The notes below the pieces were generated by a model. That model was given only the letters and a program-made list of their open reading frames with translations. It had not been told where the DNA came from and made no database searches. DNA of 64,000 nucleotides from Halogeometricum sp. S1BR25-6 (GTDB lineage: Archaea > Halobacteriota > Halobacteria > Halobacteriales > Haloferacaceae): the NCBI RefSeq assembly GCF_031624495.1, contig NZ_JAMQOP010000002.1, positions 806,001 to 870,000 of the forward strand, read 5' to 3'. Of this stretch, positions 44,412 to 49,658 are shown piece by piece; the first letter of the stretch is position 1; the number at the start of each line of letters is the position of its first letter. The translations under genes were made by a program, and so were the position numbers.

Positions 44412-45284
44412 CTATTTCTCTTCGGTAGATGCCGACGCCTCGAACCGGTAGGTGTCCCCGCGGTCCACGTACGCGACCCGGTCTTCGAGGCCCGCCGCCT
44501 CGACGGCCTCTTTGAAGTCCGACAGCGGCGACTGAAACACCTCGTAGTCGTCGTAGTGAATCGGGATGTTCTCGTCCGCGTCGAACAGTTCGACGGCCTC
44601 GACGCCCTGTTCGGCGTCCATCGTCAGGAGAACGCCCAGAATCTCGGTCCCGCCCAGATGGAGGAGGGCGAGGTCGATGTCAGGGAAGCGCTCGGGAATC
44701 TCCTCCAACTCGTCGTACATCACCGTGTCGCCCGAGACGAACAGGCGGAAGGAGGTTCCCTCGCCCGCCCCCGCCGGACGGAATTCGAGCACGCTGCCCA
44801 TGACGGGCGGGAGCGCCTTCTCGACCACCGGCGGGCCGTGTCGGCCCGGCGTCGAGGTGATGTCGAGTTCCGCCTCGCCCTTCCGGACGGTCACCTCCTC
44901 CCAGGTGTCCATCGCGTACGTCTCGCGGAACCCTTTCTCTTCGAGTTCCTCGGCGGCGTGTTCGGTGGTCACGATTGGGAGATTCTTATCCAGTTTCTCC
45001 TCGACGATTCGGTCGAAGTGGTCGCCGTGGTAGTGCGACAGCAGGACGAAATCGAGGTCCTCCGGCAGGTCCTCGATGTCGATTGCGGGGTCGGTCTTCC
45101 GTTCCGAGCGAATGCCGTAGCCGAGGTGGACGTGGTCGCCGCTGTGCAGGAAGTTCGGGTCCGTGAGGATTGTGAATCCGGCGTAGCGGACGATGACGGT
45201 GGCCGTCCCGACAAAGAAGATGGAACCGTTTTCGGTCTCTTGTGGTTCCGATTCGGATTCGGGGAGTTCGAGGGTCTGGCTCAC
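44412..45284 (-). CDS. UlaG-like MBL-fold hydrolase
   Basis: 290 residues from a GTG start. After a Ser/Glu-rich leader, GSIFFVGTATVIVRYAGFTI begins the beta-lactamase fold; metal ligands are in LLSHYHGDHFDRI, STPGRHGPP, FVSGDTVMYDEL and IPIHYDDYEVF. This is the L-ascorbate-6-phosphate lactonase (UlaG)-like branch, but the haloarchaeal substrate is unknown. The upstream region up to the tRNA-Thr gene contains palindromes. Confidence 0.83.
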   Translation of the reverse strand: MSQTLELPESESEPQETENGSIFFVGTATVIVRYAGFTILTDPNFLHSGDHVHLGYGIRSERKTDPAIDIEDLPEDLDFVLLSHYHGDHFDRIVEEKLDKNLPIVTTEHAAEELEEKGFRETYAMDTWEEVTVRKGEAELDITSTPGRHGPPVVEKALPPVMGSVLEFRPAGAGEGTSFRLFVSGDTVMYDELEEIPERFPDIDLALLHLGGTEILGVLLTMDAEQGVEAVELFDADENIPIHYDDYEVFQSPLSDFKEAVEAAGLEDRVAYVDRGDTYRFEASASTEEK

Positions 45285-45365
45285 TTCTCGTGGTTGCGTT
45301 CGAGGAAGGTTAGTGGTGGTACTTGCTTATTCAACGGAAAGCCAAAAACGGAGAAAAGGGAATAC

Positions 45366-45463
45366 GGCCGGGATTTGAACTTCACTCGCTAACGCTCGTG
45401 CGTTCAAATCCGCGGGTCCGCCTTTTACCTCACCACCTGTCGCGGCGCGACGAGACGCGCCGC
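45366..45463. repeat. Partial copy of the tRNA-Thr 3' end with hairpins
   Basis: GGCCGGGATTTGAAC (45366-45380) repeats bases 45491-45505 of the tRNA-Thr gene, i.e. its T-arm and 3' side. GGATTTGAAC (45371-45380) also pairs perfectly with GTTCAAATCC (45402-45411) around a 21-nt loop that carries GAGCGTTAGCGAG on the minus strand. A second hairpin, GCGGCGCG-ACGAGA-CGCGCCGC, covers 45442-45463. No functional tRNA can be folded here. The rest of 45285-45484 has no gene. Confidence 0.7.
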
Positions 45464-45484
45464 TCGGAGAGTGAGTTCGTTAAA

Positions 45485-45556
45485 AGCCTAGGCCGGGATT
45501 TGAACCCGGGCTCTCGTCCTTACCAAGGACGCGCTTTACCGCTAAGCTACCCAGGC
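45485..45556 (-). tRNA. tRNA-Thr (anticodon GGT)
   Basis: A 72-nt cloverleaf on the minus strand. The acceptor GCCTGGG pairs with CCTAGGC with one G-U pair; the D-arm is TAGCTTAGCGGTAAAGCG; the anticodon stem-loop CGTCC-TTGGTAA-GGACG gives GGT; and the T-arm is CCCGG-GTTCAAATCCCGG. The discriminator is U. No intron and no encoded CCA. It reads ACC/ACU codons and is a target for t6A37 made by KEOPS. Its T-arm sequence is duplicated 125 bases away. Confidence 0.93.
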
Positions 45557-45640
45557 ACGCATACAGTCGTTGTCCGGATTCGTCTTTAGGCGTTTCGATT
45601 CGGCCCGCCTACGTCACGGAGTTCCACGCGACCGGGAGTC

Positions 45641-46318
45641 CTACCGGTCCGCCGACGACGGCACTCGGTCGTCCGTCGTGCTGGTCACCGACAGCGACGC
45701 GATGCGTTCTGTCGTGGCGTCCGAGAAGGCCGTCGTCGCCGGCGGGAGGTCCTCCTCGGCGTCGCACTCGCGGGCCAGTTCGGCGGCGTATTCGAGGAGG
45801 GCGGGCGGGGCGTCACCGCCGACGGCCGTCGTCCCGGCGACGACGGCGAGGGTGAAGATGTCCGCTTCGAGGTTCCGGTCGACGGCGTCGGCGGCGTCCT
45901 GTTTCCGGCGGAGCGTCTGGTCGCGGCCGAACGCGCGGACCACCTCGACGGCCCGGTCGGCGGCGTCGGTCCGAGCGAGCACGTAGAACCCGCGGGAGAC
46001 GAGCACGTCGGCGGCGATGACGTCCAGGTCGCCGGAGATATCCTCGTCGTCGCCGCTGAGCCACGGTTCCTCGTGCGCCAGGGTCCGCGTGAGTCGGAGC
46101 CCCTCGTAGATGAGTTGGACGCCCGCGGCGCGTTCGGCGAGTCCGTCGGTGTCGGCGTCCGCGCCGGGTTCGAGCGCGCGGGCGCTCAGGAGCGTCAGCG
46201 CACCCGGCGTCATCGAAGCGTCGTCGAGGCGGCCGAACAACACCGCACGGAGGCGGTCCGGCTCGATATCGTCGAGCGCCTCGCGCGCGGCGTCACGGGC
46301 CCGCACGGCGTCGTCCAT
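45641..46318 (-). CDS. Helical protein of unknown function, haloarchaeal
   Basis: 225 residues, alpha-helical and acidic, from the ATG at 46318: MDDAVRARDAAREALDDIEP, LLSARALEPGADADTDGLAE, RAAGVQLIYEGLRLTRTLAH, DDEDISGDLDVIAADVLVSR. The pattern of helices with D-x2-AADVLVSRG resembles a diverged prenyl-synthase-like helical fold, but the Asp-rich catalytic motifs are not evident, so I make no assignment. It is divergent from the enoyl-CoA hydratase gene, with 60 bases between starts. Confidence 0.65.
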   Translation of the reverse strand: MDDAVRARDAAREALDDIEPDRLRAVLFGRLDDASMTPGALTLLSARALEPGADADTDGLAERAAGVQLIYEGLRLTRTLAHEEPWLSGDDEDISGDLDVIAADVLVSRGFYVLARTDAADRAVEVVRAFGRDQTLRRKQDAADAVDRNLEADIFTLAVVAGTTAVGGDAPPALLEYAAELARECDAEEDLPPATTAFSDATTERIASLSVTSTTDDRVPSSADR

Positions 46319-46378
46319 TAGCCGAAAGTTACGGCGGGAAGGGCAAAGACCTTTGGAAAACGCGCAGGAGGGACGCGC

Positions 46379-47092
46379 ATGATTCGAACGACGGCGGACG
46401 GAGCGGTCCGGGTCGTGACCCTCGACCGACCCGACCGACGGAACGCGCTCCGGCCCGCGGACCTCGACGAACTCGCGGCCGCCGTGGCTGGCGCGGACCC
46501 CGAAACGACGCCAGTCGTTTACCTCCGCGGGGCGGGCGGACACTTCTCGGCGGGCGCGGACCTCGATAGCGTGGCGGCGCTCGACGACCCCGAGGCGTTC
46601 GCCCGCCGCGGTCAACGAGTCGCGAACGCCATCGCCGACGCACCCGTCACCGTCGTCGCCGGAATCGACGGCGCGGCCCGCGGCGGGGGCGTGGAACTCG
46701 CTCTCGCCTGCGACGTGCGCGTCGCCACCCCGCACGCGACGTTCGCGGAACCGGGCGTCCGCTTCGGCCTGTTCGGCGCGTGGGGCGGCACCGTCCGCCT
46801 CCCGCGAATCGTCGGCGAGGGCGAGGCGCTGGACTTCGCGCTCTCGGGCCGAGTCGTGGACGCGGCGGAGGCCCGCCGGATGGGACTCGTCTCCCGCGTC
46901 GTCGACGACCCGCGGTCCGTCGCGGACGAGATAGCGGCGAACCGGCCCGACGCCCTCCGCGCGGTGAAAGCGCGCCTCCGCGACGACGCGGACGACGAGA
47001 CGAGAGAGCGGGCCGAAGCGGAGGCGTTCGCCCGGCTACACGGGCGGTACGCCGACGAGATTCGGGAAGTGAGAGACGGCCGAGGCGGATGA
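46379..47092 (+). CDS. Enoyl-CoA hydratase/isomerase family protein
   Basis: 237 residues with the crotonase fold: VRVVTLDRPDRRNALRPADL, the oxyanion-hole segment GGHFSAGADLDSV, GIDGAARGGGVELALACDVR and RLPRIVGEGEALDFALSGRV. It likely hydrates enoyl-CoA in fatty acid beta-oxidation or isomerises a related acyl-CoA. Of the two usual catalytic Glu positions one is not obvious (GAWGGT follows the loop), so the precise reaction is uncertain. It converges on nadE. Confidence 0.87.
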   Translation: MIRTTADGAVRVVTLDRPDRRNALRPADLDELAAAVAGADPETTPVVYLRGAGGHFSAGADLDSVAALDDPEAFARRGQRVANAIADAPVTVVAGIDGAARGGGVELALACDVRVATPHATFAEPGVRFGLFGAWGGTVRLPRIVGEGEALDFALSGRVVDAAEARRMGLVSRVVDDPRSVADEIAANRPDALRAVKARLRDDADDETRERAEAEAFARLHGRYADEIREVRDGRGG

Positions 47093-47124
47093 GGAGAGGG
47101 CCGGTTCGAGGGGTGCCGCCGCTC

Positions 47125-47952
47125 TCAGATATCGAGCGGTTCCGGCGCGGGCGGCATGTGTCGCTTGTGCTCGCTGCGTTCGACCAGTTCGACCACTCGG
47201 TCGACCTGCGCGTCGGTCACGCCGAGGTGGTCGACGGTAGCCGACTTCGAGAGCGGTCCGTCGACGTGCATCGCGAGGATGGCGTCGAGGGTGTCGTAGT
47301 CGAGTCCCATCTCGTCCTCGTCGCTGTGGCCCTCCCACATCTCCGCGGAGGGAGTCTTCATGACGAGGTCCTCCTCGACGCCCATCTTCGCGGCGAGTTG
47401 CCGCACCTGCTGTTTGTACAGGTTTCCGATGGGGTTGCAGTCGACCGCCTGGTCGCCGTACTTCGTGAAGTAGCCCGTCATCGCCTCCGAGCGGTTGCCC
47501 GTCCCGAGGACGAGTTTGTTCTCGGCGTTGGCGACGAAGTAGTTCAACACGCCGCGGGTCCGAACGTAGACGTTGCCGGCGGCCACCTGGTCGTCGGCCG
47601 CCTCGGGGAACGCGTCGAAGAATGTCTCGGCGATGGGCTGAATCTCGATCACGTCGTACTCGATGTCCAACTCCCGGGCGATGCGTTCGGCGTCGCTCAT
47701 GTTCCGGTCGGTGTTCACCTCGCTCGGCATCACCACGCCGTGGACGTTCTCCTCTCCGAGGGCTTCGACGGCGAGGTGGGCGACGGTCGTGCTGTCGATG
47801 CCGCCGGAGAGGCCGAGGACGGCCCCCTCGGCGCCGGCGTTCTCCACGACGCTCCGGACGAACTCGACGATGTGGTCGTGTGTAGCGTCCAGTTCGTCGG
47901 GCGAGAGGCGGAGGTCCAACGGAGCAGTGTCGCTCAGCACGGTGGCTTCCAT
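47125..47952 (-). CDS. nadE: NAD+ synthetase (ammonia-dependent NadE)
   Basis: 275 residues. The PP-loop is AVLGLSGGIDSTTVAHLA, with VLGTGNRSEAMTGYFTKYGD, PIGNLYKQQVRQLA and KTPSAEMWEGHSDEDEMGLD following. It amidates nicotinate adenine dinucleotide with ATP and ammonia; no glutaminase domain is attached. A TATA-like TTTATTAG lies about 30 nt upstream of the ATG at 47952 on the minus strand. The long open frame beyond that ATG overlaps palindromic DNA and is not coding. Confidence 0.94.
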   Translation of the reverse strand: MEATVLSDTAPLDLRLSPDELDATHDHIVEFVRSVVENAGAEGAVLGLSGGIDSTTVAHLAVEALGEENVHGVVMPSEVNTDRNMSDAERIARELDIEYDVIEIQPIAETFFDAFPEAADDQVAAGNVYVRTRGVLNYFVANAENKLVLGTGNRSEAMTGYFTKYGDQAVDCNPIGNLYKQQVRQLAAKMGVEEDLVMKTPSAEMWEGHSDEDEMGLDYDTLDAILAMHVDGPLSKSATVDHLGVTDAQVDRVVELVERSEHKRHMPPAPEPLDI

Positions 47953-48095
47953 AATCACGCGAGAGTACCACCTCGGAGAACTAATAAACACCCATCGCCG
48001 GCGTTCCGTGGACGGACGGTCAGTTTCCCGGCCGCGCGGCGGGAGGGAGGTCAGCGAAACGCTACGTTCAAGTGCGACCGGGCGGTTAGCACGAT

Positions 48096-48190
48096 GTGAG
48101 CGCCGATGGTCAATCGAGCGAAGCGAGATTGACCCCGGAGCGCGAGTGAACGAAGCGCGCCGATGTGTCACCGAACGCGGTGAGGTGACG
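48096..48190. repeat. Copy of the tRNA-Gly 5' end followed by three palindromes
   Basis: GTGAGCGCCGATGGTC (48096-48111) is an exact copy of 48206-48221, which covers the tRNA-Gly 5' end. Three hairpins follow, each with an 11-nt core: GGTCAATC/GATTGACC around GAGCGAAGCGA (48108-48134); GCGC/GCGC around GAGTGAACGAA (48140-48158); GTCACC/GGTGAC around GAACGCGGTGA (48167-48189). One arm of the first hairpin is made from the copied tRNA sequence. No gene lies between nadE and the tRNA. Confidence 0.75.
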
Positions 48191-48209
48191 CGCGGGGCGA
48201 ACAAAGTGA

Positions 48210-48280
48210 GCGCCGATGGTCCAATGGTAGGACATTAGCTTCCCAAGCTAATAGTCCGGGTTCAATTCCCGGTCGGCGCA
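48210..48280 (+). tRNA. tRNA-Gly (anticodon CCC)
   Basis: A 71-nt cloverleaf. The acceptor GCGCCGA pairs fully with TCGGCGC and A is the discriminator. The D-arm region is TGGTCCAATGGTAGGACA, the anticodon stem-loop TTAGC-TTCCCAA-GCTAA gives CCC, and the T-arm is CCGGGTTCAATTCCCGG. It reads GGG. No intron and no encoded CCA. Partial copies of both its ends occur next to it. Confidence 0.93.
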
Positions 48281-48344
48281 CTCCCTACGGTTGCTTGCCG
48301 ACCGACCGTCGCAGACCTGCGGTCTGCTCAGTCCCGGTCGGCGC
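48267..48344. repeat. Duplicated tRNA-Gly 3' end with an intervening palindrome
   Basis: TCCCGGTCGGCGC occurs at 48267-48279 (end of the tRNA gene) and again at 48332-48344. Between the copies lies GCAGACC-TGC-GGTCTGC (48311-48327), a perfect 7-bp stem whose loop reads GCA on the other strand. The arrangement looks like an element bounded by a duplication of the tRNA end. Confidence 0.7.
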
Positions 48345-48375
48345 GTTTTCCGAACGAATCAGACGGTCCGAATCG

Positions 48376-48843
48376 CTACTCGGCAGCCGTCTCCGTCCCC
48401 CTTCCGCACACCGGCGGTCGCTGTTCGGTCCACAGACCCAGTCCGTCGTCCTCGATTCGTACCTCTAGCCCGTAGCAGTCGGCGTCGGTGCTCTCGGTAT
48501 CGAACGTCGTCCACGTCTCGTCGTCGTCGAGGCGGAAGTACAGTAGGTACGTTCCGCCGTCGTCGACCCACGGACCCTTCACCGGAAGCGGCGACGAGAC
48601 GCTGTTGGCCCCGCCGAGGTCGTACGACGACCAGAACGCCACCTCGTCCTCCCGTTCGGCCATGACGTGAACCGTGTGGTCCGTCGCGTCCTCGTTCACG
48701 ACGCGGACGTACCCCAGATTTCTCCGGGCCGCAGCCCGTTCGTTTCGCGCACTCGTCCCCCCGCATCCCGCGATGGCCGCCGCGCCCGCCGCACTCGCGG
48801 CGAGGAGACGACGGCGCGAGAGCGGGGACTCCCATCCATCCAT
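48376..48843 (-). CDS. Tat-exported lipoprotein, unknown
   Basis: 155 residues. The twin-arginine signal is LSRRRLLAASAAGAAAIAGC, ending at a lipobox cysteine. The mature domain is a small beta-sandwich-like protein: YVRVVNEDATDHTVHVMAER, FWSSYDLGGANS, TYLLYFRLDDDETW and DCYGLEVRIEDDGLGLW. Similar small domains are common among haloarchaeal surface proteins of unknown role. The ATG at 48843 opens the signal peptide. Confidence 0.75.
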   Translation of the reverse strand: MDGWESPLSRRRLLAASAAGAAAIAGCGGTSARNERAAARRNLGYVRVVNEDATDHTVHVMAEREDEVAFWSSYDLGGANSVSSPLPVKGPWVDDGGTYLLYFRLDDDETWTTFDTESTDADCYGLEVRIEDDGLGLWTEQRPPVCGRGTETAAE

Positions 48844-48902
48844 ACTCCGAGTTCCCGCCGGAGGGCAAAAACATTCGCTTCGAAGACTGTTCCGATATCA
48901 CA

Positions 48903-49658
48903 TCAGTCGAGGTACGGGTCGAACTCCCGCGACTCGACGAGTTCGAGGAGCGTCGCCGTCGCGTCGGCGTCGAAACGGAGAACGCGCCGCCACCACGGCC
49001 CCTTCCCGGAGTCGTTCGAGAGGTCAGTGACGATGCGGTTCGCGTCGGCGCCCGCCGCGGGCGAGGAGAGGGGAACGACCCGGTCGAACAGCCCCGAGCG
49101 GTCGGTGCCCGCGACCAGCACCGCCGCGTCGAACGTCTCCCGCTTGACGTGGGCGTTGTTGGCGAAGCGGGCGCGTTCGGATTCGGGGAGCGACTCGTAC
49201 TCCTCGGGAGTGAGCGCGACGTCCACCTCGAAGCCGCCGATGAGGTACGCGCCCCATTCAGGCGCGAGGTAGTCCGCGGCCCCGGTGTCGGCGTCGGCGT
49301 CGGACGGACTTTCGTGGCGGTCCAAGGTGGCGTAGAAGAACAGCCAATCGCCCGGGTCGAGTCGGGAGAGCGGACCGGCTTTCACCCCGTGTTCGTCGCC
49401 GTACGTGTGGCGTTCGCAGTGCGGGTAGCCCGCGAACTCCGGGTCGAGGTGGACGCGCGCGTCGCGGACCGATTCGGGGAGTTCGACCGGCGGGTCGAGG
49501 TCCGCGTACGTCGGCACCGACACGTCCGGACGCGTCGGTTCGCGTTCGGGGATGGGGACGTAGGCGAACGTCCCGTCGGGGTAGACGGGGCCACGGACGC
49601 CCGGAAGCGAGGAGTTCGCGGCGACGTTGATGGCGATGGCTCTGGTCACGAGCGTCAC
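48903..49658 (-). CDS. Nmad3-like putative nucleotide-modification protein
   Basis: 251 residues. AIAINVAANSSLPGVRGPVY, FAYVPIPEREP, HLDPEFAGYPHCERHTYGDE and KAGPLSRLDPGDWLFFYATL match the layout I know for Nmad3, a domain predicted to be associated with modified nucleotides in phage and prokaryotic DNA or RNA. The later part includes GAYLIGGFEVD and NNAHVKRE. The activity is unproven and the family call rests on pattern recognition. No other DNA modification or restriction genes adjoin it. Confidence 0.65.
   Translation of the reverse strand: MTLVTRAIAINVAANSSLPGVRGPVYPDGTFAYVPIPEREPTRPDVSVPTYADLDPPVELPESVRDARVHLDPEFAGYPHCERHTYGDEHGVKAGPLSRLDPGDWLFFYATLDRHESPSDADADTGAADYLAPEWGAYLIGGFEVDVALTPEEYESLPESERARFANNAHVKRETFDAAVLVAGTDRSGLFDRVVPLSSPAAGADANRIVTDLSNDSGKGPWWRRVLRFDADATATLLELVESREFDPYLD

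What the first reader, a model, noticed from the sequence alone, without database searches (positions are those of the whole stretch)
48096..48344. tRNA-Gly gene flanked on both sides by partial copies of its own ends plus hairpins
16 bases at the 5' end are repeated 110 bases upstream and 13 bases at the 3' end are repeated 65 bases downstream, with palindromes filling the gaps. One arm of the first hairpin is built from the copied tRNA sequence. This looks like repeated insertion events duplicating target DNA, or copying from the adjacent gene, rather than an ordinary integration scar, since no integrase is present.
Basis: seen in the sequence. Interest (0 to 1): 0.82.

Follow-up and report, generated by a model that had tools for sequence, protein, structure and literature searches.

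The report
Hairpin modules copying tRNA gene ends
In salt-loving archaea, many tRNA genes, including the tRNA-Gly gene in this window, are followed (and a few are preceded) by rows of short non-coding hairpin units, each carrying a spare copy of that tRNA's own end; the rows are gained, lost and reshuffled between species, and I found no description of this as a genome-wide class.

Summary
The tRNA-Gly(CCC) gene (48210-48281) is preceded by two tandem 53-57 nt hairpin modules. It is followed by one 63 nt module ending in a copy of the tRNA 3' end. The genome is a Halogeometricum (haloarchaeon). The arrangement is not peculiar to this locus. In this genome 19 of 47 tRNA genes carry a partial 3'-end copy downstream. 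Across five Halogeometricum genomes I extracted 119 modules at 78 of 170 tRNA genes. The same hairpin bodies sit behind many kinds of tRNA across the order Halobacteriales, each with ends matching its host tRNA. A covariance model finds them in 21 of 24 Halobacteriales genomes and in none of 124 other genomes of the phylum. Empty and filled sites differ by exactly one module. The hairpins show compensatory changes around a conserved tandem G.A motif. Best reading: tRNA-anchored hairpin modules, gained and lost as whole units through the repeated tRNA ends, with hairpin tips exchanged between tRNA genes. How a module reaches a new tRNA, and any function, is not shown.

The parts
48056..48074 (+). 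Promoter-like element GAAACGCTACGTTCAAGTG conserved upstream of tRNA-Gly(CCC) in relatives
   Evidence: Relatives without 5' modules have the tRNA 24-33 nt after it; here the first partial copy starts 25 nt after it and the tRNA 135 nt after it. Promoter role inferred.
48100..48156 (+). 5' module 1: copy of tRNA 5' end (GCGCCGATGGTC) + hairpin capped GAGCGAAGCGA + leader GAGTGAACGAAGC
   Evidence: RNA fold z -3.95; same module in G001 and G004 in other order
48157..48209 (+). 5' module 2: copy GCGCCGATG + hairpin GTCACC/GGTGAC capped GAACGCGGTGA + leader GCGAACAAAGTGA
   Evidence: RNA fold z -3.27; the only 5' module in G002
48210..48281 (+). tRNA-Gly(CCC) gene
   Evidence: ARAGORN; Rfam RF00005 73.7 bits
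48282..48344 (+). 3' module, type B: trailer 48282-48296, inverted acceptor strand 48297-48306, cap hairpin GCAGACC-TGC-GGTCTGC 48311-48327, direct copy of tRNA 3' end 48332-48344
   Evidence: fold z -2.66 as RNA, -3.61 as the opposite DNA strand; cap shared with Gly, Ala and Asp tRNAs of other genera
48345..48349 (+). GTTTT after the copied 3' end, possible terminator
   Evidence: Sequence; terminator role inferred
45485..45556 (-). tRNA-Thr(GGT) gene, second tRNA of the window
45366..45484 (-). 3' module of tRNA-Thr(GGT), type A; hairpin 45368-45414, direct copy GTTCAAATCCCGGCC 45366-45380
   Evidence: covariance model R1 33.2 bits, E 2.7e-6

Best explanation
These are members of a haloarchaeal family of non-coding tRNA-anchored hairpin modules. 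A 3' module is [trailer hairpin][inverted copy of the T-loop and T-stem, or of the acceptor strand][cap hairpin][direct copy of the host tRNA's own 3' end]; a 5' module is the mirror arrangement. Shown: architecture, host-matched ends, strict attachment of type A to tRNA genes, whole-module presence/absence at orthologous tRNAs, compensatory base changes, sharing of bodies between tRNA genes. Inferred: because every module ends in a copy of the tRNA end, recombination between copies removes or duplicates whole modules and always leaves an intact tRNA; the short universal T-loop sequence flanking the bodies lets bodies be swapped between tRNA genes by gene conversion or microhomology recombination, which the many genome copies of haloarchaea would favour. 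The modules persist as largely selfish or neutral passengers, selected mainly to fold away so that the spare tRNA ends do not disturb tRNA folding.
For: 19 of 47 tRNAs here and 14 of 30 in another family of the order carry 3' copies, against 1 of 32 in two genomes outside the order. 119 modules in five genomes; direct copies start mostly 21-25 nt (type A) or 15-18 nt (mostly type B) from the 3' end. Inverted arms match their own tRNA better than others (mean 2.4 against 4.1 mismatches of 12). The pair outside the tandem G.A switches G-C/C-G (29 and 19 of 57); 46 double-sided changes against 15.8 in shuffles. All 29 haloarchaeal matches to body A1 follow a tRNA gene or tRNA-like 3' end; 17 of 17 model hits fetched from other genera follow a tRNA on the same strand. 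Empty/filled sites: the flank after the copy in one species equals the flank after the tRNA in another, e.g. Arg-TCG and Leu-CAA.
Against: No recombination event was observed. Births at new tRNAs are not explained: both inverted and direct copies must be made to fit the new host. Some tRNAs (Arg-TCG, several Ser) carry modules in many genera, which also fits a useful function. No expression data.
Confidence: 0.55

Rival explanations
1. Functional cis RNA elements: the modules are cotranscribed with the tRNA and aid termination, processing or release of small RNAs, like the repeats of the E. coli tyrT operon.
For: Compensatory changes and conserved tandem G.A; fold z median -3.4 for type A; many modules begin with T-rich trailers; persistence at Arg-TCG across genera.
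Against: More than half of tRNA genes lack them; orthologous tRNAs gain and lose them within a genus; type B has the cap motif on the opposite strand.
Confidence: 0.25
2. Miniature site-specific elements: each module is a tiny element whose attachment site is the tRNA end, inserted by a tyrosine recombinase acting in trans; 5' modules would use enzymes that recognise the 5' half.
For: Duplications start at the T-loop and run to the 3' end, as at integrase sites; module-precise empty/filled sites; 5'-half attachment sites are known for pTN3-like archaeal integrases (PMC8371274).
Against: No recombinase gene among the neighbours tested; module ends fit the host tRNA at many kinds of tRNA, unlike one enzyme with one site; apparent islands of this genome differ.
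Confidence: 0.2
3. Replication template switching at the tRNA hairpins makes inverted and direct copies locally; no transfer between genes.
For: Combination of inverted and direct copies of the same tRNA segment.
Against: Bodies unrelated to the tRNA are conserved between different tRNAs, genera and families.
Confidence: 0.12

Closest known systems
rtT repeats of the E. coli tyrT operon (Rfam rtT; own knowledge, no open paper found)
   Same: Tandem units downstream of a tRNA gene, each containing a copy of the tRNA 3' end
   Different: One operon there; here many tRNA genes of a genome, tRNA-matched inverted arms, bodies shared between tRNA genes, also on the 5' side. No Rfam match other than tRNA and weak tRNA look-alikes
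Integrase attachment scars and tRNA remnants of haloarchaeal integrative elements (PMC3119063, PMC7921747, PMC8371274)
   Same: 3' tRNA segment duplicated; tRNA stays intact
   Different: Tens to hundreds of bases between copies, no genes, defined hairpins, tandem. [quoted passage not shown] its main text gives no explanation
Small mobile repeats, PATEs and MITEs of Haloquadratum (PMC3119063)
   Same: About 100 bp, non-coding, palindromic; SMR-A insert into palindromes of IS605-type ends, and one of our cap hairpins also occurs in palindromes near TnpB-like genes
   Different: SMR-A and PATEs target mobile elements or other sites and do not duplicate a target; type A modules were found only at tRNA ends and carry tRNA-specific copies

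Membership tests
Integrative element attachment scar | Integrase-bearing element, or its remnant, between tRNA and copy | tested here: not met
   50 nt between the tRNA and the second copy here, typically 50-130 nt elsewhere, non-coding; no integrase among eight neighbouring ORFs
Integrative element attachment scar | Copy of the tRNA 3' end | tested here: met
   13 nt here, mostly 15-25 nt elsewhere
rtT-type tRNA repeats | Tandem units each with the tRNA 3' end | tested here: met
   Up to three or four copies per tRNA
rtT-type tRNA repeats | Sequence/structure match to the Rfam family | tested here: not met
   No match besides tRNA at gathering scores in four loci; none to rtT at E up to 1 in window 45000-49500
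rtT-type tRNA repeats | Released small RNA | not testable with these tools
   No expression data
MITE / SMR / PATE | Dispersed copies at sites unrelated to tRNA | tested here: not met
   19 type A model hits in the genome: all lie behind a tRNA gene or a displaced tRNA 3' end; the type B cap alone does occur elsewhere
MITE / SMR / PATE | Too short to encode a transposase | tested here: met
   Inserts mostly 50-130 nt

The most novel reading that the evidence does not exclude
A distinct class of mobile or recombinogenic hairpin modules specialised on tRNA genes: the body moves between tRNA genes and, on arrival, acquires direct and inverted copies of the new host tRNA's end, so that it always rebuilds the tRNA. 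The 3' type B modules would be 5' modules turned round across the acceptor stem.
Probability: 0.4. Interest if true: 0.88.

Novelty: new variant of a known kind. Interest (0 to 1): 0.7.

Why it matters
tRNA genes are the classic landing sites of mobile DNA, and partial tRNA copies are usually read as scars of integrated elements. In haloarchaea many partial copies belong to modules of another kind, so counts of 'integration scars' there may be inflated. The modules also give a large natural series (many tRNAs, many species) for studying how structured repeats are born, adapted and lost next to essential genes, and can be tested in Haloferax.

Tried and rejected
Chance repeats: rejected by the cross-flank control. 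Ordinary integration scar: rejected for size, tandem structure and body conservation. Viral origin: body A1 has one viral-contig match and it is not at a tRNA. Known RNA family: none. A first test of host specificity using only five T-stem positions was misaligned and gave no clear answer; replaced by a 12-nt comparison. Literature searches on rtT/tyrT, haloarchaeal tRNA repeats, palindromes and downstream hairpins gave only the papers cited; subscription papers are not held.

Full report
What is there. tRNA-Gly(CCC) occupies 48210-48281 on the + strand. Upstream are two further occurrences of its first nine bases, at 48100 and 48157, so the leader holds two tandem modules: 48100-48156 and 48157-48209. 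Each is a tRNA 5' end followed by a hairpin and a purine-rich leader. Both fold better than shuffles as RNA (z -3.95 and -3.27). Downstream, 48282-48344 holds a trailer, an inverted copy of the acceptor strand, a perfect 7-bp hairpin, and a direct copy of the tRNA 3' end, then GTTTT.

Position of the 5' modules. A promoter-like element (GAAACGCTACGTTCAAGTG) is conserved in relatives. Where there is no 5' module the tRNA starts 24-33 nt after it. In the four Halogeometricum loci measured the first partial copy starts 25 nt after it and the real tRNA 78-136 nt after it. The copied end therefore sits where the tRNA would otherwise start, and the gene is displaced downstream by one or two modules. 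The order of modules differs between species of the genus: two in this genome, the reverse order in G001, one in G002.

Not only glycine. In this genome 19 of 47 tRNA genes have a copy of 13 nt or more of their own 3' end within 250 nt downstream, after excluding second full tRNA genes. The control pairs each tRNA with flanks of other tRNAs: 44 of 2150 reach 13 nt. In a genome of another family of the order 14 of 30 do; in two genomes outside the order 1 of 32. Five-prime copies other than second tRNA genes were seen only at Gly(CCC), Gly(TCC) and Gln(TTG).

Anatomy of the family. From five genomes I extracted 119 module candidates at 78 of 170 tRNA genes; a few are second full tRNA copies or fused modules. 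Type A modules have a trailer hairpin, an inverted copy of T-loop and T-stem, a cap, and a direct copy beginning at the T-loop (mostly 21-25 nt from the 3' end). Type B modules pair with the acceptor strand and copy about 13-15 nt; the window's module is type B. The inverted arms fit their own tRNA better than other tRNAs: mean 2.4 against 4.1 mismatches of 12. Caps such as TCAGGGAGC..GCGACCG and CAGCGAGC..GCGAGTG recur behind different tRNAs. Both have two G.A mismatches in a row, and the base pair next to them is G-C in 29 and C-G in 19 of 57 cases. On an alignment of 38 hairpins there are 46 double-sided changes against 15.8 in shuffles. The arms are derived from tRNAs, so part of that covariation is inherited from tRNA; the G-C/C-G switch in the cap is not.

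Distribution. The 19-base start of body A1 was sought in one genome for each of 84,980 species: 29 of 37 matches are haloarchaeal and all 29 follow a tRNA gene on the same strand (28 called by ARAGORN, one after a tRNA-Arg-like 3' end), at more than ten kinds of tRNA; the other eight are non-haloarchaeal (mostly cyanobacterial) matches with no tRNA nearby. A covariance model hit 21 of 24 Halobacteriales genomes and none of 124 other genomes of the phylum. Of 19 hits in this genome, the three not at listed tRNAs were checked: one follows tRNA-Pro(CGG), two follow displaced 3' ends of tRNA-Thr(CGT) and tRNA-His whose intact genes lie about 11 and 39 kb away. These look like integrated islands, with the modules left outside. 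All 17 hits fetched from other genera follow a tRNA. The model and the A1 pattern contain tRNA-like arms, so some bias towards tRNA ends is built in.

The window's own cap. GCAGACCTGCGGTCTGCTC and its variant GCAAACC..GGTTTGC occur 31 times in 293 Halobacteriales genomes; every match keeps the pair complementary although the pattern allowed mismatches. Of 30 loci read, 16 have a tRNA upstream on the same strand; those with a clear 3' copy are Gly, Ala and Asp. One lies upstream of tRNA-Gly(CCC), where it is part of a 5' module read on the other strand. Seven are in palindromes with one shared sequence, which lie close to TnpB-like genes in two of those examined in detail. The cap is thus not exclusive to tRNA genes. 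Since the reverse complement of the acceptor 5' strand is its 3' strand, type B modules may be 5' modules turned round. That is inference.

Turnover. For 44 comparisons of orthologous tRNAs, the sequence after a copied end in one species matches the sequence directly after the tRNA in another, above the 99th percentile of control pairs. At tRNA-Arg(TCG) H. pallidum has, directly after the tRNA, nearly exactly the flank that follows the 114-nt module in this genome. Whole modules are thus gained or lost without harm to the tRNA. Orthology was assigned by anticodon and flank, not by full synteny.

Mechanism. Shown: the anatomy, tRNA-matched ends, shared caps, module-precise differences and compensatory changes. 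Inferred: recombination between the repeated tRNA ends, cap exchange through short T-loop homology, and a mainly passive role. A function in transcript termination or processing, or insertion by a recombinase in trans, is not excluded.

Relation to known things. The nearest kinds are the tyrT repeats of E. coli, tRNA remnants at integrated elements, and small mobile repeats of Haloquadratum. Each fails at least one tested feature. PMC7921747 remarks on partial tRNAs directly next to full copies in Haloferax gibbonsii, so the raw phenomenon has been noticed; I found no account of the modules in the open papers searched.

Noticed in passing
L237 and L238 (own genome C1:1098644 and C1:390576): Displaced 3' ends of tRNA-Thr(CGT) and tRNA-His followed by modules, about 11 and 39 kb from the intact genes: apparent integrated islands.
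   Followed up: partly
L270-L274, L283, L284: The cap hairpin of the window's 3' module also sits in a palindrome with a shared sequence (GAATCCCGCCGTT..GGGCATC..AACGGGCGTGAATC); in L271 and L273 a TnpB-like ORF follows.
   Followed up: partly
L189 (G003), upstream of tRNA-Gly(CCC): H. limi has a decayed partial tRNA-Gly copy (about 40-50 nt) directly upstream of the intact gene.
   Followed up: no
window 48116-48126 and module loops generally: Hairpin tips share the form GARC-GNA-GYGA (mirror-symmetric, tandem G.A around a GNA loop), reminiscent of the very stable DNA mini-hairpin GCGAAGC (own knowledge).
   Followed up: partly
own genome tRNA-Gln(TTG), L065 and relatives: A 12-nt exact 5'-end copy lies about 60 nt upstream of tRNA-Gln(TTG) in four of five Halogeometricum genomes.
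   Followed up: no
window 48903-49658 -: ORF with an Nmad3 nucleotide-modification-associated domain (Pfam E 2e-53) near the tRNA.
   Followed up: no
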